Shown piece by piece: positions 19,375 through 64,000 of a DNA stretch of 64,000 nt. Made by a program: the position numbers and the translations under genes. The stretch comes from Acidovorax sp. (GTDB taxonomy: Bacteria > Pseudomonadota > Gammaproteobacteria > Burkholderiales > Burkholderiaceae_C): NCBI GenBank assembly GCA_031277855.1, contig JAITLO010000032.1:248001-312000 (forward strand), in the 5' to 3' direction. The first letter of the stretch is position 1. Every line of letters starts with the position of its first letter. Under the pieces are notes generated by a model. It was not told the origin of the DNA. It was given only the letters and a program-made list of their open reading frames with translations, and searched no databases.

Positions 19375-20424
<1,050 letters not shown>

Positions 20425-44019: not shown

Positions 44020-44147
44020 AGTGCTCCACTCTGGCGGCGTGGGGGCCACCTGGTGTGATCCAACTGCCCACCACTGCGGAGGCTCTGGGCAGAGAAAGGG
44101 GTCGCGCACCTGGGCTGGAGCGCCTGAGCACCGCTGCGACCTGTTTT

Positions 44148-44168
44148 TGTAAACACAAAGTGTATGCA
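44148..44168. promoter_or_regulatory. two one-mismatch TGTATACA sites upstream of puuD
   Basis: TGTAAACA (44148-44155) and TGTATGCA (44161-44168) each differ by one base from the palindrome found upstream of hiuH, gntR and the NCS2 permease. They lie 129-149 bases before the puuD ATG and about 60 past the xdhC stop, a plausible regulatory position. Confidence 0.45.
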
Positions 44169-44225
44169 AATCCAATACCACAGCAGTCAAAAAACCGATG
44201 GATATCCCCCCGGGCATACCCTGAT

Positions 44226-45077
44226 TCACATCCCCCGCGTCTGCATCAGCTGGGCAGCAACGGCCACGGCAATCACCTCGGGCTCCTTGCCCTGCACGCC
44301 GGGCACGCCCATGGGGCAATGCACGGCATCCACTGCCTCTGCCGCAAAGCCCCGCTCCAGCAGCCGGCGCCGAAAGCTGGCCCATTTGCTGGCACTGCCT
44401 ATCAGGCCCAGAAAAGGCAGGTCGGCCGCCGCACGCTGGCGCGCCAGGCAGGCGAGCAGAATCTCCCAGTCCTCTGCATGGCTGTGGGTGAGTATCAGCA
44501 CCCGGCTGCCAGCGGGCAGATCGGTCACGGCGTCCTGAACCGGGTCGGCCTGCAACTGCAAGGCCTGGGGTGCCCAAGAGGCCATGGGGGTGGGCTCGGT
44601 CTCGGCCCAAATCCCAGGGCGGCTGTCCACCCAGGTCGTCTGGCAGGGCAGGCCTTGCAGCAAGCTCACCAGAGCCTGGCCCACGTGGCCGGCACCAAAC
44701 ACGGCCACCGGCATGCGCGGGCGCTGCAAATGCTGCCAGCGCGGCAAATCCTGGGCCTGTATAGCGACATAGCCCAGATACACCACACCGCCGCAGCACT
44801 GCCCCAGGCTAGGGCCCAGTGCATAACGCTGCACTCCGGCTGGGGCCCGGCCCTGGAGCACGGCCTGGGCATGGGCCAGGGCCTGGTATTCCAGATGGCC
44901 TCCGCCAATGCTGCCCACCAGGGCCTGCATGCACCCTGGCGCCAGTCCGGCCGGCACCGCCATCCAGGCTCCCTGCTCGCGCGGTGCAGAGCCCTGTACC
45001 CGCTCTACCCACACCAAGCAGGCCGGCCCCTGGCTCAGGCTGGCTTGGAGTTGCTGCCATGCATTCACTACGGTCAT
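44226..45077 (-). CDS. xdhC: xanthine dehydrogenase accessory protein XdhC
   Basis: XdhC binds molybdenum cofactor, promotes its sulfuration and inserts it into XdhB. The 283-residue protein has the N-terminal domain signature GSAPREQGAWMAV with VGSIGGGHLEYQAL and GPSLGQCCGGVV (the conserved CCGG). A Rossmann domain follows (MPVAVFGAGHVGQALV), then ILTHSHAEDWEIL and FLGLIGSASKWASFRRRL. The ATG at 45077 fits the family start; an ATG at 45113 is an alternative. It is divergent from a small lipoprotein gene and lies 206 bases upstream of puuD on the same strand. Confidence 0.92.
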   Translation of the reverse strand: MTVVNAWQQLQASLSQGPACLVWVERVQGSAPREQGAWMAVPAGLAPGCMQALVGSIGGGHLEYQALAHAQAVLQGRAPAGVQRYALGPSLGQCCGGVVYLGYVAIQAQDLPRWQHLQRPRMPVAVFGAGHVGQALVSLLQGLPCQTTWVDSRPGIWAETEPTPMASWAPQALQLQADPVQDAVTDLPAGSRVLILTHSHAEDWEILLACLARQRAAADLPFLGLIGSASKWASFRRRLLERGFAAEAVDAVHCPMGVPGVQGKEPEVIAVAVAAQLMQTRGM

Positions 45078-45210
45078 ACCTTGCTGCGCCCTTGACTGAA
45101 CACCTTGCTCCATGAGGCCATCGACAGACGTTAGGATGGGGGTCTGTCTCCTGCTGCTGGCAAGCAAGCCGCTTGCCAGTTGGCGCTCTCACTCAGGATA
45201 CCTTTACGCC

Positions 45211-45720
45211 ATGGCTGAACCTACGTCCTCCACCCCCTCGTCTTCCCCAGGCCCGCAGCGTTCGGGCCGCTCCTGGCTCTGGCGCAGTCTGGCCGCCGGG
45301 GTCACCGTGCTGCTGGCCGCCTGCGGCTCCGTGCCCCATTTCGGCAGCAAGCCTGGCGCTTCCGGCCCAGCAGCGGGCACGGCCGCCACGCGCGAATACC
45401 GCCAGGACGCTGCCCGCCATATCTACGCCCGCAACCAGCAACGCATCTACAAGGGCCAGTTGCCTCCCATGCTGTATGCCGTGGGTGTGCTGGAGGTTGA
45501 AGTGGACCGCAGCGGCAATGTGCGCCGCCTGCGCTGGTTGCGTGCGCCCAGCCATGCACCCGAAGTGGTGGCCGAGATCGAGCGCACCGTGCGCGCGGCC
45601 TCGCCCTTTCCAGCCCCCAGCCATCTGAGTGGAAAGATGACCTATACCGACACCTGGCTGTGGGACCAATCCGGGCGCTTTCAGCTCGATACCCTTACCG
45701 AGGGGCAACGCGGGGAGTAA
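45211..45720 (+). CDS. lipoprotein with TonB-C-like domain, unknown function
   Basis: A 169-residue protein. A polar Ser/Pro-rich start is followed by a hydrophobic segment and lipobox VLLAAC (Cys38). The mature part has a domain resembling the TonB C-terminus: LYAVGVLEVEVDRSGNVRRL, then APEVVAEIERTVRAASPFPAP and a terminal strand TDTWLWDQSGRFQLDTL. Such proteins are often labelled energy transducer TonB, but here there is no TonB proline-rich spacer, so a structural or binding role is as likely. It is divergent from xdhC, and a dispersed repeat starts right after the stop. Confidence 0.7.
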   Translation: MAEPTSSTPSSSPGPQRSGRSWLWRSLAAGVTVLLAACGSVPHFGSKPGASGPAAGTAATREYRQDAARHIYARNQQRIYKGQLPPMLYAVGVLEVEVDRSGNVRRLRWLRAPSHAPEVVAEIERTVRAASPFPAPSHLSGKMTYTDTWLWDQSGRFQLDTLTEGQRGE

Positions 45721-46057
45721 AGCGACACCCCCCTGAGGCGCTACGCGCCTTCCCCCCGCTCTTCACGAGCTGCGCTCGCGGGCAGGGGGTCGACAGCGGA
45801 GCGTAAGGGGCGGCCCTTGCTCGCTGTCCCTGGCGAAAGAGGCCCAAGCATGCTTCTGAGTAGAGTCAAAACTCCAGCGGTTCAGGCTGGCCGGAGTGGG
45901 CCTGAGCAGCGCAGTGGGCGCTCAAGCACAGTCACAACGGCCAGACAGCGCTTGAGGCGCGGCGCGCGCCCGCAGACAGTACTTGCGTACGGCCAGGGCG
46001 CGCAACAAAGCATCAAGCGCTGTGTGGCCGCATCAGCACGGGCCACCCACGCAAAAA
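45721..46057. repeat. dispersed-repeat region, about 340 bases
   Basis: 45727-45840 is a diverged copy of the GC-rich unit (CCCCCTGAGGCGCTACGCGC, later GGGGCGGCCCTTGCTCGCTG). 45889-45921 matches 19159-19191 with few differences. The rest (about 45925-46057) is GC-rich with short inverted segments. No gene is seen between the two flanking genes. Confidence 0.65.
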
Positions 46058-46408
46058 CTAAGAACCTCGGTACGTCGAATAGCTCCAGGGGCTGACCAGC
46101 AGGGGCACGTGATAGTGCTGATCGGCATGGGCCACACCAAAGTCCAGGCTCACCTGGTTGAGAAAATTGGGCTCGGGCAGTTGCACACCCTTGGCCTTGA
46201 AATAGGCGGCCACATTGAAGCTCAGGCGGTAGGTGCCGGGTTTCAGGCTGGCGTTGTCAAACAGCGGCGCGTCGGTGCGGCCGTCGTGGTTCAGCGTCAA
46301 GGTCTGCAGCAGCGTGGCATTGTCACCCTGGGTGGCAAACAGCTTGACTTGCATGCCAGCGGCAGGACAGCCGTGCATGGTGTCCAGAACATGTGTACTC
46401 AGGCCCAT
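46058..46408 (-). CDS. hiuH: 5-hydroxyisourate hydrolase
   Basis: HIU hydrolase (transthyretin-like) opens 5-hydroxyisourate from PuuD to OHCU, the substrate of UraD. The 116-residue protein starts GLSTHVLDTMHGCPAAGM, with the catalytic histidine in the STHVLDT signature. The middle has NHDGRTDAPL, and it ends with the invariant YRGS preceded by HVPLLVSPWSYSTY. No signal peptide is seen, so it is cytosolic. TGGAGA precedes the ATG. It lies downstream of the peptide ABC operon but has its own promoter region with an exact TGTATACA site. Confidence 0.95.
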   Translation of the reverse strand: MGLSTHVLDTMHGCPAAGMQVKLFATQGDNATLLQTLTLNHDGRTDAPLFDNASLKPGTYRLSFNVAAYFKAKGVQLPEPNFLNQVSLDFGVAHADQHYHVPLLVSPWSYSTYRGS

Positions 46409-46466
46409 AAAGTCTCCATTGGTTATGGCACAGGCCGCAGGAGAGAGGCCTGTTTTTTCAATTGAG

Positions 46467-46474
46467 TGTATACA
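46467..46474. promoter_or_regulatory. TGTATACA palindrome upstream of hiuH
   Basis: An exact TGTATACA lies 59-66 bases upstream of the hiuH start, in the gap behind the peptide ABC ATPase gene. The same palindrome precedes gntR and the NCS2 permease gene, so it is a candidate GntR operator. Confidence 0.65.
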
Positions 46475-46514
46475 AAAATTGCACACTCATCAGCCATAAC
46501 ACCCCGTCTCTTTT

Positions 46515-48146
46515 TTATTCGCTACGGAGAAAAGCAAAGTCACGCCCCGGTGCGGCCGCCAGCAGGCTGCGCGTATACGCATGCTGTGGCGCGGAAAACA
46601 CCTGCTCCACCGCACCGCTTTCCACCACCTCCCCCTGGTGCATGACCAGCACATGGTCGCAGATCTGGCTGGCGACACGCAAGTCGTGCGTGATGAAGAC
46701 CATGCCCAGATCCAGTTGCTGCTGCACCTGGTTCAGCAGCTGCAGGATTTGCGCCTGCACCGACACGTCCAGCGCTGAAACCGCCTCATCGGCAATCAGC
46801 ACCTTGGGCTGGCAAGCCAGGGCCCGGGCAATCGAGATACGCTGACGCTGCCCTCCCGAGAACTCATGCGGATAGCGGTGCAGCGCGGCCGGAGACAGCT
46901 GCACCAGCTCCATCAAGGCCTCGGCGTGGGCCCATGCCTGGGCCTGAGACACACCGAAGTTGCAAGGCCCCTCAATAATGGATGCGCCCACGGTCCGGCG
47001 TGGATTGAGCGAGCGATAAGGGTCCTGAAAAATGACTTGCACCATGCGGCGAAACGGCGACAGTGCACGCCCCTGATGCTGCACCACAGAGCGACCTTGT
47101 GCCAGAACATCGCCATGGCTGGGGTCGATCAGCCTGGCCATGCAGCGCGCCAAGGTGGACTTGCCGGAGCCGGACTCGCCCACAATGCCCACGGTTTCGC
47201 CCGGCCGCACCTGCAGCGAGACATTGCGCACCGCATGCACCACACGCCTGTGGCGCGGCAAGAAGCCCGAGGCGTAAATCTTGCCCATGTTCTGCGCCTC
47301 CAGCAAAGGATGGGGGACCGCAGAGCGGGCTGTGACAGGGGGGCGCTTGCCGCCGCCCAGCACGGGCACGGCATTCAGCAACATGCGCGTATAGGGCCTG
47401 GCCGGCACGGTCAGCACCTGCTGCTTGCTGCCCAGCTCCACCATGTGGCCCTGGCGCACCACCACCACCTCGTCGGCGATTTCGGCCACCACACCAAAGT
47501 CGTGGGTGATGAACAGCACCGCCGTGTGGTGCTCCGTCTGCAACTCTTGAATGAGTTTGAGGATTTCGGCCTGGGTGGTCACATCCACGGCCGTGGTCGG
47601 CTCATCGCAGATCAGCAGCGCAGGCTTGAGTATGAGGGCCATGGCAACGCCTATGCGCTGGCGTTGGCCGCCCGAAAGCTGGTGGGGATAGGCCGCATAG
47701 ATGCGTTCGGGATCGGGCAGCCGCACCCTGGCCATGATGTCCAGAATCATCTGGCGCCGCTGTGCCCGGGCCATGTCCAGGTGCTGTGCCAGCATTTCAT
47801 CGATTTGCGCACCACAGCGCATCACGGGGTTCAGCGCCGTCATAGGTTCCTGAAACACCATGGACATCACCGGGCCGCGCAAGGCGCGCAGCCGCAGGGC
47901 CGAGGCATGCAACAGGTCTTGCCCCTGCAGCACGATCTGCCCTTCTGCGGCTTTCATGCCTGCCGGCAGCAGGCCCATGATGGCATTCGCAATGATGGAC
48001 TTTCCCGAGCCCGATTCGCCCAGCAGGCACACGGTCTGCCCGCGCTCGATATCGAAAGAGATATGGCTGACGGCAAACTCGCGCTCGCCGCCCTGGGGCA
48101 GGGCAATGCTGAGGTTCTGAACAGAGAGAATGGGCAGCACGGACAC
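46515..48146 (-). CDS. peptide ABC transporter, fused dual ATP-binding protein
   Basis: A 543-residue fusion of the two ATPases of a dipeptide/oligopeptide importer (DppD-DppF, like YejF or GsiA). Domain 1: Walker [10 protein letters not shown]-loop [12 protein letters not shown], signature LSGGQRQR, Walker [12 protein letters not shown]. Domain 2 from about residue 275: [39 protein letters not shown]. Both appear competent. It starts with a GTG directly after the permease stop, AAAGGTGA serving as ribosome binding site. It is the last gene of a four-gene operon. The substrate is not known; the divergent gamma-glutamyltransferase hints at glutathione-derived peptides. Confidence 0.9.
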
Positions 48147-49079
48147 TCACCTTTGGCGTTGGTTGAACTTGGGGTCCAGCGTGTCACGCAGGCCATCTCC
48201 GAGCATGTTCACGGCCAGCACGGTCAGTCCCAGAAAAATGCCGGGCAGCAGCACGTTGTGCGGGTATTGGTTGAATTGCGCACGCCCCTCGGACATGAGG
48301 TTGCCCCAGGTGGCCATGTCTGCCGGCAGCCCCAGCCCGAGAAAGGACAGAATGGCCTCCACCAAGATGGCCGAGGCACAGACATAGGTGGCCTGAATGA
48401 TCAATGGCGCAGCCGCATTGGGCAAAATGTGGTGCAGCAGCATCTTCCATGTGGGCGTATCCAGCGCTATGGCCGCTTCCACATAAGGCTCTTCGCGCAG
48501 GCTCAACACCACCGAGCGCACCAGGCGCGCCGTGCGCGGGATTTCCGGTACGGCAATGGCCACCACCACGGTGGGCAGGCTGCCGCCAAACAAGGCCACC
48601 AGGCTGATGGCAAACATCATGCTGGGAACGGCCATGACACCATCCATCAAACGCATCAACACATTGCCGAAACGGCGGAAATACCCGCCCACCAGGCCGA
48701 ACGCCATGCCCGCCCACATGGCCAGACAGGTGCTTGCCAAACCCACCAGCAGCGAAACACGTGCCCCATACAGCACGCGACTCCAGATATCGCGCCCCAG
48801 GCTGTCACTCCCCATCCAGAACCAATGTGCAAACACCTCGCCCGACAGCGCGTGAAACTCCCCCCGGGAGCCGGGCAGTAGATTGGCGCTGCTGGGATCC
48901 ATGGCCGTGGGGTCTATGGTGTCCAGCCACGGTGCCATGATCGCCATCAGCACCAAGACCAGCAGCACACCGCCCCCTAGACGAACCGCGCTGTTGGCCC
49001 ACATGCGCAACCACAAGGAGCTGCGCCGCAAAGGAGGATCTTTGTCATCCCATGGATAGCTGGACTGCGTGAAAGACAT
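48147..49079 (-). CDS. peptide ABC transporter permease, DppC type
   Basis: A 310-residue permease. The cytoplasmic N-terminus (YPWDDKDPPLRRSSLWLRM) precedes the first helix, as in DppC/OppC. GSDSLGRDIWSRVLYGARVSL and the coupling-helix motif EPYVEAAIALDTPTWKMLLHH are diagnostic. Six transmembrane segments are expected. The ATG at 49079 was chosen because GAGGTG lies before it; a GTG at 49085 is in frame. It starts eight bases after the DppB-type gene. Confidence 0.9.
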   Translation of the reverse strand: MSFTQSSYPWDDKDPPLRRSSLWLRMWANSAVRLGGGVLLVLVLMAIMAPWLDTIDPTAMDPSSANLLPGSRGEFHALSGEVFAHWFWMGSDSLGRDIWSRVLYGARVSLLVGLASTCLAMWAGMAFGLVGGYFRRFGNVLMRLMDGVMAVPSMMFAISLVALFGGSLPTVVVAIAVPEIPRTARLVRSVVLSLREEPYVEAAIALDTPTWKMLLHHILPNAAAPLIIQATYVCASAILVEAILSFLGLGLPADMATWGNLMSEGRAQFNQYPHNVLLPGIFLGLTVLAVNMLGDGLRDTLDPKFNQRQR

Positions 49080-49086
49080 AAACACC

Positions 49087-50028
49087 TCAGTACCGGATGC
49101 GCGGATCGAAGAGCAAATAGCTCAGGTCAATCAGCAAATTGATGCAGACATAGGTCACCGCAAAAAACAGCGTGACACCCTGAATCAATGGGAAATCACG
49201 CGAGAGCACGGCATCCACCGTCAGCTGTCCCAGGCCGGGAATGGCAAAAACGGTCTCCGTCACCACCACGCCCCCCATCAGCAAGGCCATGCCAATGCCA
49301 ATCACGGTGACTATGGGTATGGCGGCATTCGCCAGCGCGTGGCGCAGCAGCAGCCGCAACTCCGAAATGCCTTTGGCACGTGCCGTGCGGATGTAGTCCT
49401 CGGTCAGTGCTTCGGCCACGGCCGCACGGGTGACGCGGGCAATCAAGGCCATGTAAATCAGGGACAAGGTGGCAGCCGGCAGCAGCAAGTGACACAGCCA
49501 TGGCCACAGACCTTCACTCAGCCTTGCATAGCCTTGCACCGGCAGCCATTGCAGTTGCAGGCCAAACAGCCAGATGAGCACATAGGCAATCACAAAAGAG
49601 GGAACCGAGAAGCCCAGTGTCGAGATACACATCAGGATGCGGTCCACCCAACCACCGCTGCGCCAGGCAGCAACCGTTCCCAAAGGAACGGCCACACCCA
49701 CGGTCAGCAGCAGCGTGATGGCGGTCAAGGACAGGCTGGCCTGCATGCGCAGGGCAATCAGCTCGGCCACTGGGCGCTTGATGAAATACGACTCCCCCAA
49801 ATCGCCATGCAGCAACTTGCCCCCCCAGTGCACAAACTGCACCGGCAAGGATTGGTTAAGCCCAAGCCTGTCACGCACCTTGTCTATGTGCTCGCCACTG
49901 CCCGAGTCACCCACAATGGCGGCCACCGGATCGCCCGGCGCCAGCCGCAGCATGGCAAACACAAGAACAGCCACCACCAGCAGCACAGGCACCGTAGCCA
50001 GAACACGACGAATCAGAAAAGCCAGCAT
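49087..50028 (-). CDS. peptide ABC transporter permease, DppB type
   Basis: A 313-residue permease with the DppB N-terminus LAFLIRRVLATVPVLLVVAV and the LAPGDPVAA motif. GDLGESYFIKRPVAELI and the coupling motif EDYIRTARAKGISELRLLLRH follow. Six helices are expected. It begins the membrane part of the operon, 187 bases after the binding-protein gene; a hairpin lies in that gap. Confidence 0.9.
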   Translation of the reverse strand: MLAFLIRRVLATVPVLLVVAVLVFAMLRLAPGDPVAAIVGDSGSGEHIDKVRDRLGLNQSLPVQFVHWGGKLLHGDLGESYFIKRPVAELIALRMQASLSLTAITLLLTVGVAVPLGTVAAWRSGGWVDRILMCISTLGFSVPSFVIAYVLIWLFGLQLQWLPVQGYARLSEGLWPWLCHLLLPAATLSLIYMALIARVTRAAVAEALTEDYIRTARAKGISELRLLLRHALANAAIPIVTVIGIGMALLMGGVVVTETVFAIPGLGQLTVDAVLSRDFPLIQGVTLFFAVTYVCINLLIDLSYLLFDPRIRY

Positions 50029-50162
50029 TGCTCTCGCCTTTCGCCAACAGAGATGAAAAGCCCGTCTCGCGAACCCAACGTCCCTCAGTGATTCACAACA
50101 TGACGCCCCCCCAAAAAAACCAGGACACCTCCCTCAAAACTGGCGCGCTGCACGCCAGGGCA

Positions 50163-50202
50163 CCGCTGCAGGGCCTACGCCGGCCGCGCCGCCCTGCAGC
50201 GG
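50163..50202. other. intercistronic stem-loop after the peptide-binding protein gene
   Basis: CCGCTGCAGGGC (50163-50174) pairs perfectly with GCCCTGCAGCGG (50191-50202), loop of 16 bases, no T-run. Lying between the binding-protein gene and its permease, it may protect the upstream message from exonucleases so that binding protein is made in excess (inference). Confidence 0.5.
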
Positions 50203-50214
50203 CTCAAGGGGGGG

Positions 50215-51792: not shown

Positions 51793-52325
51793 TGCCATGC
51801 CTTTCATGAAAGACAAAACAGATGGATGCCTGGCAGGCCTGCGCTCGCGCATCCCGGCCGAAGCACTGCAATCTGCCCGCACATTGCTTACCTGCTTTTT
51901 GCCACCCAGACAGAAACGGTGGGCGTGCACTTTTTTATTTTTCTATCTCAGAGAGCCACCGAGAGATTGCGTCCATATTCTCTTCGCAACAAAACGACGC
52001 AAGCACTTACCCTCACAAAAAACATGGCATACCAAAGACGATGGCTCGCCACTCCAACGATCTCAGCTTGCATGCCTAGCGCCAACAACCGGCTTGCGAT
52101 CTGGAGGCGCCCGCTGTAGAGGCCTCGCGCCCCTCTTGCGCTTTGCAACATTCTGATGTCCGGGCTTTCCCGCAGCCTGGGCCCTTCCCATGCTTGCACC
52201 ATTTCGGGGCCGTCTACACTGGCCCGGCACTTGCTCGCCTGCAACGCCATGACGGTGCAGGTCCGCAGCCTGAAGGGTGTGCAGCACCGTCTGCCCCCAT
52301 TATCTTTTTGCGAGAAGGAGACCGC
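51793..52325. other. divergent promoter region between the peptide importer and ggt
   Basis: About 530 bases. Moderately A/T-rich around 51925-52060. It must contain the promoters of both divergent units. I see no TGTATACA site, no RNA gene and no convincing open frame. GAAGGAG at about 52313-52319 is the ggt ribosome binding site. Confidence 0.5.
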
Positions 52326-54134
<1,809 letters not shown>

Positions 54135-54165
54135 ACACGCTGTAGCGCGCTACTCTCGTCACCAT

Positions 54166-54190
54166 GCCGCGCCCTGAGCGCGGCTTTTTT
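54166..54190 (+). terminator. rho-independent terminator of ggt
   Basis: GCCGCGC (54166-54172) pairs with GCGCGGC (54178-54184) around CCTGA and is followed by T6. It lies 31 bases past the ggt stop and isolates ggt from the gntR operon. Confidence 0.9.
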
Positions 54191-54256
54191 GTCTCCGCTG
54201 CAAGCGGTTTCCCCCTTGGATTTCCCCTATTATTTCTGCGCCATTGTTTGCAGAAA

Positions 54257-54266
54257 TTGTATACAA
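54257..54266. promoter_or_regulatory. TTGTATACAA palindrome upstream of gntR
   Basis: A perfect 10-base palindrome lies 19-28 bases before the gntR start, overlapping the probable promoter of the gntR-puuE-uraD/allC operon. Its core TGTATACA recurs before hiuH and the NCS2 gene. The position fits autorepression. Confidence 0.7.
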
Positions 54267-54284
54267 AACAAAAAACAAGTCGCT

Positions 54285-54974
54285 ATGATGACTCCCATGG
54301 AAAACTCAACCACCAGCACCATCGCCGAGACGCTGACCCGCGCCATCGTCGAACACAAGCTGCTGCCAGGCACCAAGCTGGCCGAGCAAAAGCTGGCCGA
54401 TCACTTTGGCGTCTCGCGCACCCTGGTGCGGCAGGCGCTGTTCACCCTGTCGCAAAATCGCCTGGTCACGCTGGAGCCCGCACGCGGCGCCTTTGTCAGC
54501 ACGCCCTCGGTGGAAGAGGCCAAACAGGTCTTTGCCGTGCGCACCATGCTGGAAAGCGAGATGACCCGCGCCTTTGTGCGCCAGGTCACGCCCGCACAGA
54601 TCAAAAGCCTCAAGACCCATATCGCCGCCGAGAAAAAAGCCATGGCCGGCAACGATGTCGGCCAGCGCACCGAGCTGCTGGGCGACTTTCACGTGGTGAT
54701 GGCGGAGTTGATGGGCAACCAGGTGCTGGCCATGTTGCTGGGTGATCTGATCTCGCGCTGCGCCCTGATCACCTTGATGTACCAAAGCACCAGCGCCGCC
54801 GAACATTCGCACGAAGAGCACGAGGCCATCGTCCAGGCCCTGGCCCGCAAGGACGAAGACCTGGCCGTGCGCCTGATGCAAGAGCATCTTTTGCATGTGG
54901 AACAAGGTCTGACCTTTGACCGCGACCTGCCCAGCAGCGACCTGTCCATGGCCTTGTCCGGCATCACCTCCTGA
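54285..54974 (+). CDS. GntR-family regulator (FCD domain), probable purine-catabolism repressor
   Basis: A 229-residue FadR-subfamily GntR protein. The winged helix is IAETLTRAIVEHKLLPGTKL, AEQKLADHFGVSRTLVRQAL and NRLVTLEPARGAFVS. A C-terminal all-helical FCD domain follows, with metal/ligand residues in EARGD-like positions (RTELLGDFHVVMAEL, HSHEEHEAIVQAL). FCD regulators usually bind short palindromes and respond to small organic acids or pathway intermediates. It is the first gene of the operon with puuE (14 bases on) and the UraD-AllC fusion. A TTGTATACAA palindrome overlaps its promoter. The start was taken at the first of two adjacent ATGs (54285, 54288). Confidence 0.88.
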   Translation: MMTPMENSTTSTIAETLTRAIVEHKLLPGTKLAEQKLADHFGVSRTLVRQALFTLSQNRLVTLEPARGAFVSTPSVEEAKQVFAVRTMLESEMTRAFVRQVTPAQIKSLKTHIAAEKKAMAGNDVGQRTELLGDFHVVMAELMGNQVLAMLLGDLISRCALITLMYQSTSAAEHSHEEHEAIVQALARKDEDLAVRLMQEHLLHVEQGLTFDRDLPSSDLSMALSGITS

Positions 54975-54988
54975 ATCTTTGCAGCACC

Positions 54989-55948
54989 ATGACTTACGAC
55001 GCCACCGCTCCCTATCCCCGTGATCTTGTTGGCTATGGCCGCCAGCAGCCCCATGCGCAATGGCCGGGCCAGGCCCGCGTGGCCGTGCAGTTTGTGCTGA
55101 ACTACGAGGAAGGTGGCGAAAACCATGTGCTGCACGGCGATGCGGGCAGCGAGCAGTTTCTGTCCGAGCTGTTCAACCCCGCGGCCTACCCGGCCCGCCA
55201 CATGAGCATGGATGGCATTTATGAATACGGCTCCCGCGCCGGCGTGTGGCGCATATTGCGCGAGTTTGAAAAACGCGGCCTGCCGCTGACCGTGTTCGGC
55301 GTGGCCACGGCCTTGCAAAAACACCGCGAGCTGGCCCAGGCCTTTGACCAGCTGGGCCACGAGGTGGCCTGCCACGGTCTGAAATGGATCCACTACCAGA
55401 ACGTGCCCGAAGAAATCGAGCGTGCGCACATGGCACAGTGCATGGAGATTTTTGAAGACATTTACGGCCATGGGGGCGACCACGGCCTGGGCTGGTACAC
55501 CGGCCGCGACAGCCCCAACAGCCACCGCCTGGTGGCCGATGACGGCCGCTTTGTCTACGACAGCGACTACTACGGCGACGACCTGCCCTTCTGGATGAAG
55601 CAGGAAAAAACCGATGGCAGCCTGCACCACCAGCTCATCGTGCCCTATACGCTGGACGTGAACGATATGCGCTTTGCCCTGCCCCAGGGCTACTCGCATG
55701 CCGACCCGTTCTTCCAGTACATGAAGGACACCTTCGACACCCTGTATGCCGAGGGTGACCCCAGCGGTGACAACGCCCCCAAGATGATGAGCATAGGCAT
55801 GCACTGCCGCCTGCTGGGCCGGCCCGGCCGCATCACCGCGCTGCAGCGCTTTCTGGACCATATCCAAAGCCACAGCCATGTCTGGGTGTGCCGCCGCATC
55901 GACCTGGCCCGCCACTGGGCCCTGCGTTTCCCCGTTCCAGCGATTTGA
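54989..55948 (+). CDS. puuE: allantoinase PuuE (metal-independent polysaccharide-deacetylase fold)
   Basis: PuuE hydrolyses (S)-allantoin to allantoate. The 319-residue protein begins YPRDLVGYGRQQPHAQWPG, the strongly conserved PuuE start, followed by RVAVQFVLNYEEGGENHVLHGD. The deacetylase fold continues with YEYGSRAGVWRILREFEKRG, GHEVACHGLKWIHYQ and GWYTGRDSPNSHRLV. It is unrelated to amidohydrolase-type AllB. It lies between gntR and the UraD-AllC gene and should be co-transcribed with both; a long hairpin follows. Confidence 0.95.
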   Translation: MTYDATAPYPRDLVGYGRQQPHAQWPGQARVAVQFVLNYEEGGENHVLHGDAGSEQFLSELFNPAAYPARHMSMDGIYEYGSRAGVWRILREFEKRGLPLTVFGVATALQKHRELAQAFDQLGHEVACHGLKWIHYQNVPEEIERAHMAQCMEIFEDIYGHGGDHGLGWYTGRDSPNSHRLVADDGRFVYDSDYYGDDLPFWMKQEKTDGSLHHQLIVPYTLDVNDMRFALPQGYSHADPFFQYMKDTFDTLYAEGDPSGDNAPKMMSIGMHCRLLGRPGRITALQRFLDHIQSHSHVWVCRRIDLARHWALRFPVPAI

Positions 55949-55956
55949 ATAAAAAA

Positions 55957-55991
55957 AGCCTCCAGCGCTTGGTACACAAGCGCTGGAGGCT
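55957..55991. terminator. 15-bp hairpin between puuE and the UraD-AllC gene
   Basis: AGCCTCCAGCGCTTG (55957-55971) pairs perfectly with CAAGCGCTGGAGGCT (55977-55991) around GTACA. A7 precedes it and only CATATTTTG follows, so on the plus strand it is a weak terminator or an operon-internal stabilising hairpin. Confidence 0.6.
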
Positions 55992-56012
55992 CATATTTTG
56001 ATAGGAGACACC

Positions 56013-57866
56013 ATGGCTTTGACCCTGGAACAACTGAACGCTGCGCCCGCAGAACAAGCCGTGGCCCTGCTCGATGGCCTGTACGAACACTCCCCCTGGA
56101 TTGCCGCCGCCGCGCTGGCCCAGCGCCCCTTCCAATCGCTGGCCCATCTCAAACACGCCATGGTGCAGGTGCTGGCCCAGGCCTCGGCACAGTCGCAGCT
56201 GGAGCTGATCCGCGCCCACCCGGAGCTGGCAGGCAAGGCCATGGTGGCCCAGGCGCTCACGGCCGAATCCACCAACGAACAGAACAAGGCCGGGCTGACG
56301 GCCTGCACGCCCGAGGAGTTCGCCCGCATCCAGCAGCTCAACGCAGACTACAACGCCCGCTTTGGCTTCCCCTTCATCCTGGCCGTGCGCGGCCCGCGTG
56401 GCACCGGCCTGGCCAAGCAGGAGATCATCGATACCTTCGCACGCCGCCTGGCCAACCACCCCGACTTTGAACGCGCCGAGGCGCTGCGCAACATCCACCG
56501 CATTGCCGAAATCCGCCTGAACGACAAGTTCGGCTACGAGCCCGTGCTGGGCCATGACGTGTGGGACTGGCAGGAAAAACTCAGCGCCCACACCGACCCC
56601 GGCTATGCCGAGCTGGGCCAGCTCACTGTCACCTACCTCACCGACGCCCACCGTGCCTGCGCCCAGCGCATCAGCCACTGGATGCGCGACTGCGGCTTTG
56701 ACGAGGTCGAGATCGACGCCGTGGGCAATGTGGTGGGCCGCTACCACCCCGCACCACCCAACGGTAATGGCGCAGCGCAGGGCCGCCCCAAGCAAGCCGC
56801 GGCCCCCTCGGGGGGCAGCGCAGCACACGAAGTGGCAAGCGTGGGGGCGCGTTACCTTTTAACAGGTAGCCACTACGACACCGTGCGCAATGGCGGTAAA
56901 TACGACGGTCGCCTGGGCATCTTTGTGCCCATGGCCTGCGTGCGCGAGCTGCACCGCGCCGGCAAGCGCCTGCCTTTTGGCATTGAAGTCGTGGGCTTTG
57001 CCGAGGAGGAAGGCCAGCGCTACAAGGCCACCTTCCTGGGCTCGGGCGCGCTGATTGGCGACTTCAAGCCCGAATGGCTGGACCAGCAGGATGCCGACGG
57101 CATCACCATGCGCGAAGCCATGCAACACGCTGGCCTGTGCATAGACGACATCCCCAAGCTGCAGCGCGATCCGGCCCGCTACCTGGGCTTTATCGAGGTG
57201 CATATCGAACAAGGCCCGGTGCTCAACGAGCTGGACATCCCCCTGGGCGTGGTCACCTCCATCAATGGCGGTGTGCGCTACAGCTGCACCATGCTGGGCA
57301 CGGCCAGCCACGCCGGCACCACCCCCATGAACCGCCGCCGCGACGCGGCCCTGGGCGTGGCCGAGCTGGGCCTGTACATGGAGCAGCGCGCTGCGCAAGA
57401 CGAAGGCAGCGTGGCCACCATAGGCATGCTGCAAGTGCCCAATGGTTCCATCAATGTGGTGCCGGGCCGCTGCCTGTTCAGCATGGACATGCGCGCGCCC
57501 ACCAATGCCCAACGCGATGCCCTGGTCCAGGACGTGCTGGCCAAGCTGGAAGAAATCGCCCAGCGCCGCGGCCTGCAATACCAGACCGAGCTGGCCATGC
57601 AAGCCGCCGCCGCCCCCAGCGCTCCGGCCTGGCAGGCCCGCTGGGAAAAAGCCGTGAGCGCCCTGGGCGTGCCACTGCACCGTATGCCCAGCGGCGCCGG
57701 CCACGACGCCATGAAGCTGCATGAAATCATGCCCCAGGCCATGTTGTTCACCCGCGGGCTGAACAGCGGCATCAGCCACAACCCGCTGGAATCCACCACC
57801 AGCGACGATATGCAGCTGGCCGTTGACGCCTTCAGCCATGTGCTGGAGCAGCTGGCTTCCGAATAA
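56013..57866 (+). CDS. fusion: OHCU decarboxylase (UraD) - allantoate amidohydrolase (AllC)
   Basis: A 617-residue bifunctional enzyme. Residues 1 to about 170 are UraD, which decarboxylates OHCU to (S)-allantoin: LIRAHPELAGK with the catalytic histidine, STNEQNKAGL, FGFPFILAVRG. From about 195 the M20-type allantoate amidohydrolase follows: LTGSHYDTVRNGGKYDGRLG (metal), GFAEEEGQRYK, IEVHIEQGPVLNE, GTASHAGTTPMNRRRDA, and a C-terminal histidine in NSGISHNPLEST. It opens allantoate with release of ammonia and CO2. The two steps flank PuuE in the pathway. Residues about 252-279 are an Ala/Gly/Pro-rich insertion that matches dispersed-repeat-like DNA. AGGAG precedes the ATG. Confidence 0.94.
   Translation: MALTLEQLNAAPAEQAVALLDGLYEHSPWIAAAALAQRPFQSLAHLKHAMVQVLAQASAQSQLELIRAHPELAGKAMVAQALTAESTNEQNKAGLTACTPEEFARIQQLNADYNARFGFPFILAVRGPRGTGLAKQEIIDTFARRLANHPDFERAEALRNIHRIAEIRLNDKFGYEPVLGHDVWDWQEKLSAHTDPGYAELGQLTVTYLTDAHRACAQRISHWMRDCGFDEVEIDAVGNVVGRYHPAPPNGNGAAQGRPKQAAAPSGGSAAHEVASVGARYLLTGSHYDTVRNGGKYDGRLGIFVPMACVRELHRAGKRLPFGIEVVGFAEEEGQRYKATFLGSGALIGDFKPEWLDQQDADGITMREAMQHAGLCIDDIPKLQRDPARYLGFIEVHIEQGPVLNELDIPLGVVTSINGGVRYSCTMLGTASHAGTTPMNRRRDAALGVAELGLYMEQRAAQDEGSVATIGMLQVPNGSINVVPGRCLFSMDMRAPTNAQRDALVQDVLAKLEEIAQRRGLQYQTELAMQAAAAPSAPAWQARWEKAVSALGVPLHRMPSGAGHDAMKLHEIMPQAMLFTRGLNSGISHNPLESTTSDDMQLAVDAFSHVLEQLASE
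56770..56846. repeat. dispersed-repeat-like segment inside the UraD-AllC coding sequence
   Basis: The DNA (GGGCCGCCCCAAGCAAGCCG, then GGCCCCCTCGGGGGGCAGCG and AAGTGGCAAGCGTGGGGG) is far more GC-rich and palindromic than its surroundings. It has the look of the GC-rich intergenic elements seen elsewhere in the window (shared GGGCCGCCCC core). It is read in frame without a stop, adding about 28 residues between RYHP and YLLTGSHYDT. Confidence 0.65.
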
Positions 57867-57891
57867 ATACCGCAGACAAGAGACAAACACC

Positions 57892-59166
57892 ATGACCCCC
57901 AACCGCCAAGCCACCTATGCCGCACTGGACGCCTGGATCGACCAGCATTTCGACGAGCAGGTGCAGTTTCTGCAGGCCCTGGTGCAAGTGCCCACCGATA
58001 CGCCACCGGGCAACAACGCCCCCCATGCCGAGCGCACGGCCACACTCATCCAGGCCTTCGGCTTTGATGCCGAAAAGCATGTAGTGCCCGCGCAAGAGGT
58101 CAAGGACTACGGCATGGAGTCCATCACCAACCTCATCGTGCGCCGCCCCTACGGCCAGCCCGGCAGCGGCAAGACCATTGCCCTGAACGCCCACGGCGAT
58201 GTGGTGCCCCCGGGTGAAGGCTGGAGCAAAGCCCCCTATGGCGCAGTGATTGAAGACGGCAAGATGTATGGTCGCGCCACGGCCGTGAGCAAGAGCGACT
58301 TTTCCACCTTCACCTTTGCCGTGCGTGCGCTGGAGGCCGTGGCCAAACCTGCCAAGGGCGCGGTGGAGCTGCACTTCACCTACGACGAGGAATTTGGCGG
58401 TGAACTGGGCCCGGGCTGGCTGCTGAAAAAAGGCCTGACCAAACCCGATTTGATGGTGGCCGCAGGCTTTAGCTACGAAGTGGTCACCGCCCACAACGGC
58501 TGCCTGCAGATGGAAGTCACCGTGCACGGCAAGATGGCCCATGCCGCCGTGCCCCACACCGGGGTCGATGCCCTGCAAGGCGCCGTGGCCGTCATGAACG
58601 CGCTGTATGCCGAGAACGCAAAGTACCAGCAAGTCACCTCCAAGGTGGCCGGCATCAAACACCCCTATCTGAACATCGGCCGCATCGAAGGCGGCACCAA
58701 CACCAATGTCATCCCCGGCAAGGTGGTGCTGAAGCTGGACCGCCGCATGATCCCCGAGGAGAACCCCGCCGAGGTCGAAGCCAGCATCCGCGCCGTGATC
58801 GCCCAGGCCGTGGAAGGCTTCAACCAGCAGCGCAGCTACAGCGGTGAAGACGCGGTGCGCGTGGACATCAAGCGCCTGCTGCTGGCCAACGCCATGACGC
58901 CACTGCCCGGCAATGCCCCGCTGGTGGAGGCCATCCAGGCCCATGGCGAAGCCGTGTTTGGCGAGATCCCCCCCGCCGTGGGCACGCCGCTGTACACCGA
59001 TGTGCGCCTGTATGTGGAGCGCGGCATTCCCGGCGTGATCTATGGCGCCGGCCCCCGCAGCGTGCTGGAGTCCCATGCCAAACGTGCCGACGAGCGCCTG
59101 GAGCTGGAAGACCTGCGCCGCGCCACCAAGGTGGTGGCGCGCTCGCTGGTGGACTGGCTGGAGTAA
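57892..59166 (+). CDS. M20-family (ArgE/DapE-type) deacylase/amidohydrolase, substrate unknown
   Basis: A 424-residue zinc-dependent M20 protein. Metal and catalytic motifs: ALNAHGDVVPPGEGWSKAPY (metal histidine and aspartate), RATAVSKSDFSTFTFAV, and FTYDEEFGGELGPGWLL with the catalytic glutamate pair. A dimerisation domain includes VHGKMAHAAVPHTGVDAL, and a late motif reads GTPLYTDVRLY. It starts 25 bases after the UraD-AllC stop in the same direction, so it belongs to the gntR-puuE operon by context. M20 enzymes cleave amide bonds of acylated amino acids and ureido compounds. A role in ureidoglycolate or another ureido intermediate is possible but unproved. Confidence 0.82.
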   Translation: MTPNRQATYAALDAWIDQHFDEQVQFLQALVQVPTDTPPGNNAPHAERTATLIQAFGFDAEKHVVPAQEVKDYGMESITNLIVRRPYGQPGSGKTIALNAHGDVVPPGEGWSKAPYGAVIEDGKMYGRATAVSKSDFSTFTFAVRALEAVAKPAKGAVELHFTYDEEFGGELGPGWLLKKGLTKPDLMVAAGFSYEVVTAHNGCLQMEVTVHGKMAHAAVPHTGVDALQGAVAVMNALYAENAKYQQVTSKVAGIKHPYLNIGRIEGGTNTNVIPGKVVLKLDRRMIPEENPAEVEASIRAVIAQAVEGFNQQRSYSGEDAVRVDIKRLLLANAMTPLPGNAPLVEAIQAHGEAVFGEIPPAVGTPLYTDVRLYVERGIPGVIYGAGPRSVLESHAKRADERLELEDLRRATKVVARSLVDWLE

Positions 59167-59445
59167 TGGGAACACCCCCTGAGGCGCTGCGCGCCTTCAC
59201 CCCTCTCTGGCGCTACGCGCCGGAGGGGGACGCTGCCAGCGCGGCGGGGCGGCCCTTGCGCGGCAGCCCTGACCTTGGGGCGCGCCAGTTTCAAGTGCTG
59301 CGCTCCTGACCTTGTCCTTTTTGCTTTCCACCCTCTCCCGCTTGCGGGAGAGGGTGGGGGTGAGGGCTGCGCCCCAAAGTCCTGCAAACGCTGAGCCTGT
59401 CTGCATGGCTAGCTCACATGGCAGGAGCGCCGCAACCCCTCCAGA
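59167..59445. repeat. dispersed repeats and a strong stem-loop after the M20 gene
   Basis: 59173-59290 is another copy of the GC-rich unit (CCCCCTGAGGCGCTGCGCGC, GCGGCGGGGCGGCCCTTGCG). At 59328-59357 a perfect 14-bp stem (CCACCCTCTCCCGC with GCGGGAGAGGGTGG, loop TT) continues into GGGGGTGAGGG, as near 15285 and 19010. It may end transcription of the purine operon. No gene is seen. Confidence 0.7.
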
Positions 59446-60249
59446 TCAGCCGGCCGCAGCCTGCTGCTGCAAGCGATAGGCTGCGGGTGTGCTGCCAAAA
59501 GTGCGCCGAAACAGGCTGATATAGCTGCTGACGCTGGCATAGCCCAGGTCCAGCGCAATGGCGGTGATGCTTTGGCCCTCGGCCAGCATTTCCAGCGAGC
59601 GCAGCAGGCGCACGCGCTGGCGCCAGGTACTGAAGTTAAAGCCGGTCTCGCTCACAAACCTGCGGCTGAGCGTGCGCGTGCTGAGCGCCCCCCAACTGGC
59701 CCAGGCCTCGATATCGCGTGCATCGGCCGGGTCGGCGATCAAGGCCTTGGCAATGCGCAGCAAGCGGGCATCACGCGGCAGGGGCAGGCCAAAGGCTTCT
59801 ATGGGCAGATGGCGGATTTCATCCAGGATCACGGCGCAAATATGCTGGTGGGCAGCGCTGTGCGCCAATGCGGCGTCAGGCGTTGCGCTGGCCAGGCGCA
59901 GCACGGCTTCGCGCAGCAGGCCGGAGATGCGGATGGTGCAGGGCTGCTGGGGCAAGTCCGCGCAGGCGGGCTCGGCCACATAGGCGCTCCAGCCATGGTA
60001 GGGCCCATAGGAGCGGCCCGAGTGCACATGGTGGGGCGGCAGCCAGACCGCGTGAATGGCTGGCACCATCCAGACCGCATCCTCCACCTGCACGGAAATC
60101 AGGCCCTTGAGCGAGCCGAACAGCTGGCCACGTGCATGCTGGTGCGGCTCGGACGACAACTCCTTTTCCTGCCAGCGGGTGGCGGCGATCACGCTAGGGC
60201 CATCGGCCGACTCTATGTAATGCCGCAGTTGGAGGAAAAGATCAGACAT
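59446..60249 (-). CDS. AraC-family transcriptional regulator
   Basis: A 267-residue regulator. The N-terminal cupin-type sensing domain reads SSEPHQHARGQLFGSLKG and VPAIHAVWLPPHHVHSG. The C-terminal AraC DNA-binding domain has two helix-turn-helices (SWGALSTRTLSRRFVSETG; SITAIALDLGYASVSSYISL) and ends FRRTFGSTPAAYR. It is divergent from the PPOX-type gene, and a 15-base palindrome lies between them, so it probably controls that gene and itself. The ligand is unknown. Confidence 0.88.
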   Translation of the reverse strand: MSDLFLQLRHYIESADGPSVIAATRWQEKELSSEPHQHARGQLFGSLKGLISVQVEDAVWMVPAIHAVWLPPHHVHSGRSYGPYHGWSAYVAEPACADLPQQPCTIRISGLLREAVLRLASATPDAALAHSAAHQHICAVILDEIRHLPIEAFGLPLPRDARLLRIAKALIADPADARDIEAWASWGALSTRTLSRRFVSETGFNFSTWRQRVRLLRSLEMLAEGQSITAIALDLGYASVSSYISLFRRTFGSTPAAYRLQQQAAAG

Positions 60250-60289
60250 GGCGGATTTTCGTTGTTTCTTGGCTTGAAAATTCTATAGC

Positions 60290-60304
60290 CGCCAAACCTT
60301 GGCG
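60290..60304. promoter_or_regulatory. palindrome in the AraC/PPOX divergent promoter
   Basis: CGCCAA-ACC-TTGGCG is a perfect inverted repeat of 15 bases, 40 bases before the PPOX gene and 41 before the AraC gene. It is a candidate operator for the AraC regulator or another dimeric factor. Confidence 0.5.
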
Positions 60305-60343
60305 TCTTAAGCTGCAGACATCCCCCTCGCACAAGGTTTTCCC

Positions 60344-61009
60344 ATGTCTTCAGCCCCCTCTTCTTCCCAGCATCTGCATCCCGACGACCCACGGGCCATT
60401 GACCTGGACAGTCTCTACCAACCGCCCACGGAACGCATCCAGCAAGGCGTGCTTGACCGGCTGTATGACTTTCACCGTACCTACCTGGCCCAAGCCCGGT
60501 TTTTCTGCCTGGCCACCGGCGATGGCTGCGGCCTGGACGCCTCTCCGCGCGGTGGCCCAGCGGGCTTTGTCCAGGTGCTGGATGCCCACACCCTGGCCTT
60601 TGCGGACTGGCCGGGCAACAACCGCATCGCATCGCTGCGCAATCTGCAAAGCGACAGCCGCCTGGCCATGCTGTTTCTGTTTCCCGGCCTGGACGTCTTT
60701 TTGCGCATCAACGGCCGAGGCCGCATCTCCACCGATAGCGAGTTGCTCGAGAGCTTGGGCGAAGCCGGCAAAACGCCCAAGGCTGCCACCGTGGTGCGCA
60801 TCGATGAGGTGCTGTTTCACTGTGGCCGCGCCGTCAATCGGGCCCAGCTCTGGCAGGCCGATGCCCAGCTGGGCCGCAGCGACCTGCCCAGTGTGGGCCA
60901 GGTCATGGCGGCCATGGGCAAGCTGCGCGGCGAGGCCGAGCCCAGCAGCAGCGAGGTGACGCAGGCCGATGCCCACTACGCGCACGCCATGCGCCACGCG
61001 CTCTATTGA
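60344..61009 (+). CDS. pyridoxamine 5'-phosphate oxidase-family FMN protein
   Basis: A 221-residue protein of the PPOX-like split-barrel flavoprotein superfamily (MSMEG_1061-type). Visible are RIQQGVLDRLYDFHRTYLAQ, FFCLATGDGCGLDASPRGG (the strand that contacts FMN phosphate), FADWPGNNRIASLRNLQ and VFLRINGRGRIS. Members bind FMN or F420 and reduce small substrates; the exact activity is unknown. It is divergent from the AraC regulator, which probably controls it. Confidence 0.82.
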   Translation: MSSAPSSSQHLHPDDPRAIDLDSLYQPPTERIQQGVLDRLYDFHRTYLAQARFFCLATGDGCGLDASPRGGPAGFVQVLDAHTLAFADWPGNNRIASLRNLQSDSRLAMLFLFPGLDVFLRINGRGRISTDSELLESLGEAGKTPKAATVVRIDEVLFHCGRAVNRAQLWQADAQLGRSDLPSVGQVMAAMGKLRGEAEPSSSEVTQADAHYAHAMRHALY

Positions 61010-61340
61010 GCCCCAACCGGCACGCCTCTTGCTTGGGGAGACATGCCAGACAACACGGGAGGCTCGCCACCGCAGTCCGATGTGGGTGTGGATGCAGCGC
61101 CAATGCGCCCGTCCGCATTCCATGATGCAAAAAAGCCTTTTGCAGAACAAAACGAAAATCCGCGAAACACCAAGATTTGCCCCTCAATTGGGGGCAAACC
61201 CCTAGCAAATCATGGTCAAAACGCGGGTGAACCCGTGCGTTTTACGCTCATGTTTTGTATACACTTTTTGCATGGATTCCGGTCTACAACCGTGTCGCAC
61301 CGGCATTCGACTCCGTCAATCAAGAAGGAAAAAGGCGTCC
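61010..61340. promoter_or_regulatory. NCS2 permease promoter region with TGTATACA operator
   Basis: An exact TGTATACA lies at 61256-61263, 78-85 bases before the permease start. Two hairpins lie upstream: TTTGCCCC/GGGGCAAA at 61176-61198 (7-base loop), and CGGGT-GA-ACCCG at 61224-61235 followed by GTGCGTTTTAC, which may be the terminator of the PPOX gene. GAAGGAAAAAGG before 61341 is the ribosome binding site. Confidence 0.65.
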
Positions 61341-62828: not shown

Positions 62829-62877
62829 GGCGCAAGACCTGTCTGCAGCCCCCTGCCCGGCCACCGCCGGGCGTGCG

Positions 62878-62910
62878 CCCCCTGGACGACACCGCTTTCC
62901 AGGGGGTTTT
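62878..62910 (+). terminator. rho-independent terminator of the NCS2 permease gene
   Basis: CCCCCTGGA (62878-62886) pairs perfectly with TCCAGGGGG (62898-62906), 11-base loop, then TTTT. It lies 50 bases past the stop. Confidence 0.85.

Positions 62911-63032: not shown

Positions 63033-64000
<968 letters not shown>

What the first reader, a model, noticed from the sequence alone, without database searches (positions are those of the whole stretch)
44148..61263. TGTATACA palindrome marks a dispersed purine-catabolism regulon, probably read by the adjacent GntR protein
Exact TGTATACA sites lie at 46467 (before hiuH), 54258 (before gntR-puuE-uraD/allC, here as the perfect 10-mer TTGTATACAA) and 61256 (before the NCS2 permease). 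TGTAAACA and TGTATGCA lie together before puuD. All are intergenic and upstream of urate-pathway genes in separate transcription units on both strands. An 8-mer with six A/T positions should occur less than once in 64 kb of about 64 % G+C DNA (rough estimate). The FCD-type GntR gene whose own promoter carries the best site is the natural reader.
Basis: partly seen in the sequence, partly recalled or inferred. Interest (0 to 1): 0.75.

Follow-up and report, generated by a model that had tools for sequence, protein, structure and literature searches.

The report
Urate-breakdown genes share one operator
A short DNA palindrome sits in front of the urate-breakdown transcription units in this bacterium and most of its relatives and is very probably the docking site of the regulator encoded among them; this is a well-supported new example of a known kind of switch rather than a new kind.

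Summary
TGTATACA occurs exactly three times in the window (0.08 expected) and four times in the 4.77-Mb genome, the fourth inside a coding region. The three lie before hiuH, gntR-puuE-uraD/allC-M20 and the NCS2 permease; a one-mismatch core, TGTATGCA, lies before puuD.

In 80 related loci the exact site precedes gntR in 78, hiuH in 72 of 72, the permease in 31 of 34 and puuD in 25 of 55 (50 of 55 within one mismatch); for six control genes it is 0 of 334. Among 18 family genomes with hiuH but no gntR orthologue, 3 keep the site near hiuH and a fourth has it farther off, before puuE.

Two refinements. The regulon is a compact cluster and leaves out xanthine dehydrogenase. The operator is more than one palindrome: a weaker copy lies 13 bp to one or both sides in all four promoter classes.

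Most likely mechanism: an autogenous FCD-GntR (HpxS-like) repressor released by a urate-pathway intermediate. Binding, ligand and sign are untested. An HpxS group with GT-N2-AC sites, and extra boxes beside GntR sites, are already published, so this is a new member of a known kind.

The parts
44160..44169 (-). puuD operator core (TTGCATACAC read toward puuD), 8 of 10 to TTGTATACAA
   Evidence: relatives have TGCATACA or TGTATACA here, <=1 mismatch in 50 of 55
44147..44156 (-). puuD side arm, 13 bp from core (GTGTTTACAA read toward puuD), 8 of 10
   Evidence: offset 13 enriched in puuD group
42721..44019 (-). puuD, membrane urate oxidase/hydroxylase with a C-terminal stretch resembling cytochrome c (under Pfam cut-off)
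   Evidence: PF06181 Urate_ox_N 414.7 bits; PF13442 20.3 bits, cut-off 27; no NCBIfam hit
46466..46475 (-). hiuH operator core TTGTATACAC (read toward hiuH)
   Evidence: 72 of 72 relatives
46479..46488 (-). hiuH side arm, 13 bp from core, weak (6 of 10)
46058..46408 (-). hiuH, hydroxyisourate hydrolase
   Evidence: TIGR02962 130.8 bits over cut-off
54257..54266 (+). gntR operator core TTGTATACAA, only copy in the genome
   Evidence: exact TGTATACA upstream of gntR in 78 of 80 relatives
54244..54253 (+). gntR side arm, 13 bp upstream of core (TTGTTTGCAG, 7 of 10)
54284..54289 (+). predicted -10 (TATGAT); ends 7 nt before the conserved ATG at 54297, so a leaderless gntR message is predicted
   Evidence: sequence; TATNAT 6-7 nt before the BLAST-derived start in 69 of 79 relatives
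54297..54974 (+). gntR, FCD-domain GntR regulator, the proposed reader
   Evidence: PF00392 + PF07729; 80 related loci
54989..55948 (+). puuE allantoinase
   Evidence: TIGR03212 471 bits over cut-off
56013..57866 (+). uraD-allC fusion (OHCU decarboxylase + allantoate amidohydrolase-like)
   Evidence: TIGR03164 177 bits over cut-off; PRK13799 fusion model 1069.9 bits, just under cut-off 1087; PF09349, PF01546
57892..59166 (+). M20 peptidase-family hydrolase, last gene of the operon
   Evidence: PF01546, PF07687; found in 70 of 80 loci
61255..61264 (+). ncs2 operator core TTGTATACAC
   Evidence: 31 of 34 relatives
61268..61277 (+). ncs2 side arm 13 bp downstream (TTGCATGGAT, 6 of 10; TTGTATGGAT in many relatives)
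61341..62828 (+). NCS2 xanthine/urate-type permease
   Evidence: TIGR03173 512 bits over cut-off

Best explanation
TGTATACA is the operator of the FCD-type GntR regulator encoded at 54297-54974. A dimer binds the palindrome before its own operon (gntR-puuE-uraD/allC-M20), hiuH, puuD and the NCS2 permease. A second dimer probably sits on a weaker copy of the palindrome centred 13 bp away. It most likely represses: at gntR the palindrome overlaps the -35 position. It is released by urate or another intermediate of the pathway. Shown here by comparison: which genes carry the site, its conservation, its coupling to gntR, and the 13-bp arms. Inferred: binding, dimer number, repression, ligand.
For: Rarity in window and genome. 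Conservation before gntR 78/80, hiuH 72/72, ncs2 31/34, puuD 25/55 exact and 50/55 within one mismatch; 0 of 334 exact for six control genes (4 of 334 within one mismatch); 161 copies against 48 for the next of 36 palindromes of matched composition. The site moves with hiuH: 10 of 10 loci where hiuH lies more than 1 kb from gntR, and the window itself. Second clade (52-60% identical GntR; 20 of the 47 matches listed were fetched): exact site within 200 bp upstream of gntR in 18 of 20; another family (L205, 47%) has two. Co-occurrence: hiuH site in 72/72 with gntR against 3/18 without, Fisher p = 2e-14, or 4/18, p = 3e-13; related genomes are not independent. The recognition helix has Ser44, Arg45, Thr46, Arg49 (numbered from 54285), the residues with which Atu1419 contacts ATGTATACAT (PMC7797058, passages). 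Offset 13 is the top arm offset in five of six site groups, and in all six after removing similar sequences. The core spans 54257-54266 and the predicted -10 is 54284-54289.
Against: Three gntR-less genomes keep the hiuH site, and for two of them (G019, 92% complete, and G092) no GntR match at E<=1e-20 was found; a fourth (G027) has a site 48 bp before puuE. Two of 20 second-clade genomes lack the site, and in L181 gntR has a site but no urate gene was found in the 12.5 kb taken; L207 (48%, another family) has neither site nor urate genes in 3.6 kb. The same motif lies near a paralogous FCD-GntR with NCS1 or racemase genes, so another reader is possible for some sites. HpxS of Klebsiella is cited among activators or repressor/activators (PMC4609117, passage), so the sign may be wrong. 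The window arms are weak at hiuH and ncs2 (6 of 10). No binding, expression or ligand data exist here.
Confidence: 0.86

Rival explanations
1. The motif is a general operator of several paralogous FCD-GntR proteins; the urate genes are read mainly by another paralogue, or by several with cross-talk.
For: In nine family genomes picked by eye because both lay close, a paralogue about 40-44% identical lies 0.4-2.8 kb from TTGTATACAA; in five of the nine an NCS1 permease or Asp/Glu/hydantoin racemase lies there by Pfam. Atu1419, a distant VanR-type FCD protein, binds ATGTATACAT. Three gntR-less genomes keep a hiuH site, one of them (G096) with a 41% paralogue.
Against: hiuH sites are kept with this gntR (72/72) and mostly lost without it (15 of 18 within 250 bp), including G020 and G030, which hold only a 40-43% paralogue. 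The gene's own promoter carries the site in 78 of 80.
Confidence: 0.09
2. The protein is an activator, or activator at some promoters and repressor at its own, as stated for Klebsiella HpxS.
For: A passage in PMC4609117 lists HpxS among activators or repressor/activators. At hiuH (shared gap) and puuD the site lies a median 54 and 143 bp before the start codon, which allows upstream activation.
Against: At gntR the core is centred about 35 bp before the predicted start of transcription, where it would block the promoter. Most FCD proteins repress (general knowledge).
Confidence: 0.25
3. TGTATACA is a promoter element (part of -35/-10) shared by these genes, not an operator.
For: It contains TATACA, resembling a -10, and lies close to the starts.
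Against: It is a symmetric 8-mer inside a longer palindromic flank, absent upstream of the six control genes, tracks the presence of gntR, and carries 13-bp arms. The gntR -10 is a separate TATNAT downstream.
Confidence: 0.02

Closest known systems
HpxS orthologue group (GntR, FadR subfamily; Klebsiella; named in Suvorova et al. 2015, PMC4494728, which says its regulon data are in RegPrecise)
   Same: Role near purine catabolism (Klebsiella: title of the cited paper); GT-2 nt-AC spacing of the site (passage). A gammaproteobacterial relative here (L220, 40%) lies with racemase, puuE and NCS1 genes and TTGTATACAA, which resembles the hpxSAB order as I recall it.
   Different: The window protein sits with the urate-to-allantoate genes (puuD, hiuH, uraD), without a racemase in the operon. 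The Klebsiella sequence and primary paper were not available, so orthology is untested.
Atu1419 / VanR-type FCD repressor of Agrobacterium fabrum (6Z74, 6ZA3)
   Same: FCD fold (6za3_B: Foldseek prob 1.00, E 2.9e-5, TM 0.56); 10-bp palindrome NTGTATACAN; Ser-Arg-Thr-Arg contacts conserved.
   Different: About 20% identity; hydroxycinnamic-acid degradation; its palindromes lie 190 bp apart, or 109 bp from a degenerate copy, and loop, not 13 bp.
NanR of E. coli
   Same: FCD-GntR with side-by-side dimers on a repeated operator (PMC8012715, abstract and passages); weak NCBIfam hit (80 bits, cut-off 260).
   Different: GGTATA repeats and a 32-residue N-terminal extension; this protein has about 5 residues, counted from 54297, before the Pfam GntR domain, and palindromic sites.
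Additional boxes beside GntR-family sites (Suvorova et al. 2015, section 17 read whole)
   Same: Weaker half-sites 7-12 nt from the site centre in 13 FadR-subfamily groups; the near half of the arm here falls 9-11 nt from the centre.
   Different: Here the copy has a fixed 13-bp offset and often both halves.

Membership tests
GntR family, FCD branch | GntR winged-helix domain plus FCD domain | tested here: met
   PF00392 57 bits (cut-off 27) and PF07729 84.8 bits (cut-off 24.3)
GntR family, FCD branch | GT-Nx-AC palindromic operator with A/T flanks | tested here: met
   AAAAGTGTATACACTTTT-type consensus, (binding itself not tested)
VanR-type FCD (six-helix effector domain) | six helices after the winged-helix domain | tested here: inconclusive
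   AlphaFold model has six helices 72-204 plus a short low-confidence one at 216-221; mean pLDDT 73; the six-helix rule is recalled
Metal-binding FCD | three His plus Asp/Asn ligands | tested here: inconclusive
   His136, 179, 201 (numbered from 54285) invariant in A1; placing them as the ligands and the acidic ligand four before the first His is my reading; that position is Leu132, Asp134 is near
HpxS regulators | GT-2 nt-AC spacing | tested here: met
   TGTATACA; spacing stated in PMC4494728
HpxS regulators | orthology to Klebsiella HpxS | not testable with these tools
   sequence not held; best matches in the class outside the own order are 37-40% identical
phnR_burk (TIGR03338) | score over 271.5 bits | tested here: not met
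   134 bits, best NCBIfam hit but far under cut-off
NanR (PRK03837) | score over 260 bits | tested here: not met
   80 bits

The most novel reading that the evidence does not exclude
The operator is a phased array: one strong palindrome plus weaker copies exactly 13 bp (about 1.25 helical turns) to one or both sides, so FCD dimers load side by side at right angles around the helix. The number and side of arms (both at the lone gntR promoters, downstream at ncs2, one or both at puuD, one at hiuH) set a graded order of induction along the urate pathway.
Probability: 0.35. Interest if true: 0.5.

Novelty: new member of a known kind. Interest (0 to 1): 0.36.

Why it matters
It gives a regulator, an operator and a gene list for urate breakdown in a large group of environmental bacteria, where the listings of my paper searches showed no such description. 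The regulon boundary (urate downward, permease included, xanthine dehydrogenase excluded) points to urate or a later intermediate as signal, which is directly testable. A urate-type sensor with a compact operator could serve as a biosensor part. The fixed 13-bp arm makes the unexplained extra boxes of GntR sites testable in one system.

Tried and rejected
Chance: rejected. Promoter element instead of operator: rejected. Genome-wide dispersed regulon: not supported. In 10 relatives' genomes 55 exact sites occur, 29 within 25 kb of gntR (my count from the places) and 26 elsewhere in about 46 Mb, below a first-order Markov expectation of about 1.2 per Mb taken from the window's composition; I did not examine the 26. 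Xanthine dehydrogenase as a target: xdhA of this genome lies at window 29221-30678 and has no site within two mismatches of TTGTATACAA upstream. phnR_burk and NanR membership: under cut-off. One-mismatch forms as evidence by themselves: rejected, near background. The AlphaFold model (17-sequence alignment, pLDDT 73, pTM 0.60) was good enough only for the fold class. The ligand could not be inferred from the pocket.

Script errors and dropped rows. One search read minus-strand loci in the wrong direction and was redone, where L047, cut by its contig end, was still misread. In some searches the gntR start of L129 was misplaced; the coordinates and one search show its exact site, so 77 of 80 became 78 of 80, and the 11 separated hiuH loci became 10 (the 'hiuH alone' group still holds L129). 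Upstream regions under 100 bp, or without an N-terminal match, were left out (ncs2: 34 of 39 loci with a hit). ggt, araC and pnpox had only one usable upstream region each (0 of 1 each) and are not among the six controls. In one search, 14 of the 16 unassigned sites were examined (not L079 and L126). Statistics treat related genomes as separate; after a redundancy cut the 13-bp signal stays, but the shared gntR/hiuH sites are counted in two mirror groups.
Full report
What is there. The window carries puuD (42721-44019, -; PF06181), xdhC (44226-45077, -), hiuH (46058-46408, -), a peptide-type ABC transporter and a gamma-glutamyltranspeptidase, then gntR (54297-54974, +), puuE, a uraD-allC fusion and an M20 hydrolase in one operon, an AraC gene, a pyridoxamine-oxidase-like gene and an NCS2 permease (61341-62828, +). 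TGTATACA lies before hiuH, gntR and the permease; TGTAAACA and TGTATGCA lie before puuD.

Chance. Three exact copies in 64 kb against 0.08 expected. The whole genome has four, the fourth inside a coding region. A first-order Markov model from the window would allow about 5.7 in the genome, so the total is not raised; what is striking is that three of the four fall in 15 kb, all intergenic and before urate-pathway genes.

Conservation. A profile search brought 80 loci, each with up to 10 kb on either side of a gntR relative (the best 80 kept, the candidate list itself was capped): Comamonas, Acidovorax, Variovorax, Hydrogenophaga, Delftia, Diaphorobacter, Polaromonas, Curvibacter and others. 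Within 250 bp upstream of the start, exact TGTATACA was found for gntR in 77 of 80 by script and 78 of 80 after correcting one misplaced start (L129). The other two, L060 and L095, have TGCATACA. Further counts: hiuH 72 of 72, ncs2 31 of 34, puuD 25 of 55 exact and 50 of 55 within one mismatch. Control genes of the same loci, exact: xdhC 0 of 56, puuE 0 of 79, uraD-allC 0 of 72, M20 0 of 70, maeB 0 of 37, fnr 0 of 20; within one mismatch 1, 0, 2, 0, 1 and 0. Of 36 palindromes of matched composition TGTATACA is the commonest, 161 copies against 48 for the next. Of these 161, 145 lie upstream of the four target genes.

The remaining 16 sites. I examined 14. By Pfam, the five tested NMT1/THI5-type binding-protein loci (L067, L080, L089, L101, L112), the purine/allantoin NCS1 permease (L095), an NCS2-type permease (L100), an Asp/Glu/hydantoin racemase (L070) and a dicarboxylate symporter (L054) follow or flank such sites. 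L086 and L114 show the same NMT1-like protein by my reading, and L090 probably does. L057 is the ncs2 permease with a misplaced start. L102 is unclear. So most extra sites also precede plausible purine or nitrogen uptake genes.

Natural experiments. In most relatives hiuH and gntR are divergent and share one site. In 10 loci hiuH lies more than 1 kb away, as in the window, and each has its own site. The second experiment is loss of the regulator. Of 150 family genomes searched, 108 match GntR at 1e-40. I took the 42 without a match and three that match only by a 40-46% paralogue; 18 of these 45 have hiuH, and 3 of the 18 have the exact site within 250 bp before it (G019, G092, G096). A fourth, G027, has a site 441 bp from hiuH and 48 bp before puuE. 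In many of the 18 hiuH and puuE face each other with gntR absent, and in two (L163, L164) a different GntR (35-36%) sits there without the site. Fisher's test gives 2e-14 for 72/72 against 3/18 and 3e-13 against 4/18, with the caution that genomes are related. I fetched 20 of the 47 more distant GntR matches (52-60% identity): 18 have the exact site within 200 bp upstream of gntR, L192 and L193 do not, and L181 has the site but no urate gene found in its 12.5 kb. Outside the family, L205 (47%) has two sites in the hiuH-gntR gap, L206 has one before puuE-gntR, and L207 has neither site nor urate genes in 3.6 kb. In other orders, relatives at 37-40% beside hiuH and puuE have TTGTTAACAA in the gap (L218, L219, one genus), and one beside racemase, puuE and NCS1 has TTGTATACAA (L220).

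Operator anatomy. Aligned sites show A/T-rich flanks (AAAAGTGTATACACTTTT) and side arms. Scoring every offset from 8 to 22 against shuffled flanks, 13 bp gives the highest z in five of six site groups and in all six after removing similar sequences: gntR with hiuH -13 (the hiuH view of the same sites is its mirror); gntR alone -13 and +13; puuD -13 and +13; ncs2 +13; hiuH alone -13, where -11 was higher (7.0 against 6.4) before the redundancy cut. In the window the better arm matches 8, 6, 7 and 6 of 10 positions at puuD, hiuH, gntR and ncs2, while 10 of 408 flank positions, arms included, reach 6 or more. By my reading the second element in the distant clade lies nearer 12 bp; this was not scored. 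Suvorova et al. 2015 (PMC4494728; section 17 read whole, other parts as passages) describe weaker boxes 7-12 nt from the centre of many GntR-family sites, and the near half of these arms falls there, so the arms are of a known sort, better resolved here.

Mechanism. The protein is FCD-type, with solved relatives such as 7U5Q, PmiR, NanR and Atu1419. Atu1419 contacts ATGTATACAT with Ser44, Arg45, Thr46 and Arg49 among others, and changing the G/C pair abolishes binding (PMC7797058, passages). The window protein has the same four residues. At gntR a TATNAT -10 ends 6 or 7 nt before the start codon in 69 of 79 relatives. That puts the palindrome over the -35 position and predicts a leaderless message. 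Repression with autoregulation is therefore the best guess (about 0.7), but Klebsiella HpxS is cited among activators or repressor/activators (PMC4609117, passage). The target set starts at urate uptake and oxidation and leaves out xanthine dehydrogenase (xdhA at window 29221-30678 has no site), so urate or a later intermediate is the likely ligand; this is inference.

Known or new. An HpxS orthologue group with two bases between GT and AC is named in PMC4494728, which states that its data are in RegPrecise. I could not see its species or gene lists, nor the Klebsiella paper. Passages of the Proteobacteria regulon survey PMC5343134 showed no purine GntR, and the listings of my ten paper searches showed no description of this regulon in Comamonadaceae. 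I therefore rate it a new member of a known kind, and possibly already listed in RegPrecise. A paralogous GntR lies 0.4-2.8 kb from the same palindrome in nine family genomes picked by eye, five of them with an NCS1 permease or racemase by Pfam, so cross-talk between the two regulators is an open question.

Noticed in passing
54284-54297: gntR is predicted to be leaderless: a TATNAT box ends 6-7 nt before the start codon in 69 of 79 relatives.
   Followed up: partly
54283-64000 against L063 (Comamonas composti): DNA is about 94.5% identical from 54283 to 61032 and from 62537 on, but unalignable or about 75-82% to the left, and the gntR proteins are only 79% identical: a mosaic junction near gntR/puuE. 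L063 also lacks a counterpart of 61032-62537, with the permease promoter and its site.
   Followed up: partly
L152, L154, L155, L158, L160: A paralogous FCD-GntR (about 40-44%) lies near TTGTATACAA together with an NCS1 permease or an Asp/Glu/hydantoin racemase in these family genomes, perhaps an allantoin or hydantoin regulon with the same operator.
   Followed up: partly
L163, L164: Where the usual gntR is missing, a different GntR (35-36%) sits beside hiuH, without TGTATACA: apparent replacement of the regulator.
   Followed up: no
L067, L080, L089, L101, L112 (also L086, L114 by reading): An NMT1/THI5-type ABC binding protein is preceded by the operator in Hydrogenophaga and others, a candidate uptake system for urate-pathway compounds.
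   Followed up: partly
57892-59166: M20 hydrolase that closes the operon and is found in 70 of 80 loci; a candidate for a late ureide step such as ureidoglycolate amidohydrolase (guess).
   Followed up: no
45724-45789, 59175-59208, 19309-19376: A dispersed GC-rich repeat family (pieces 87-100% identical).
   Followed up: no
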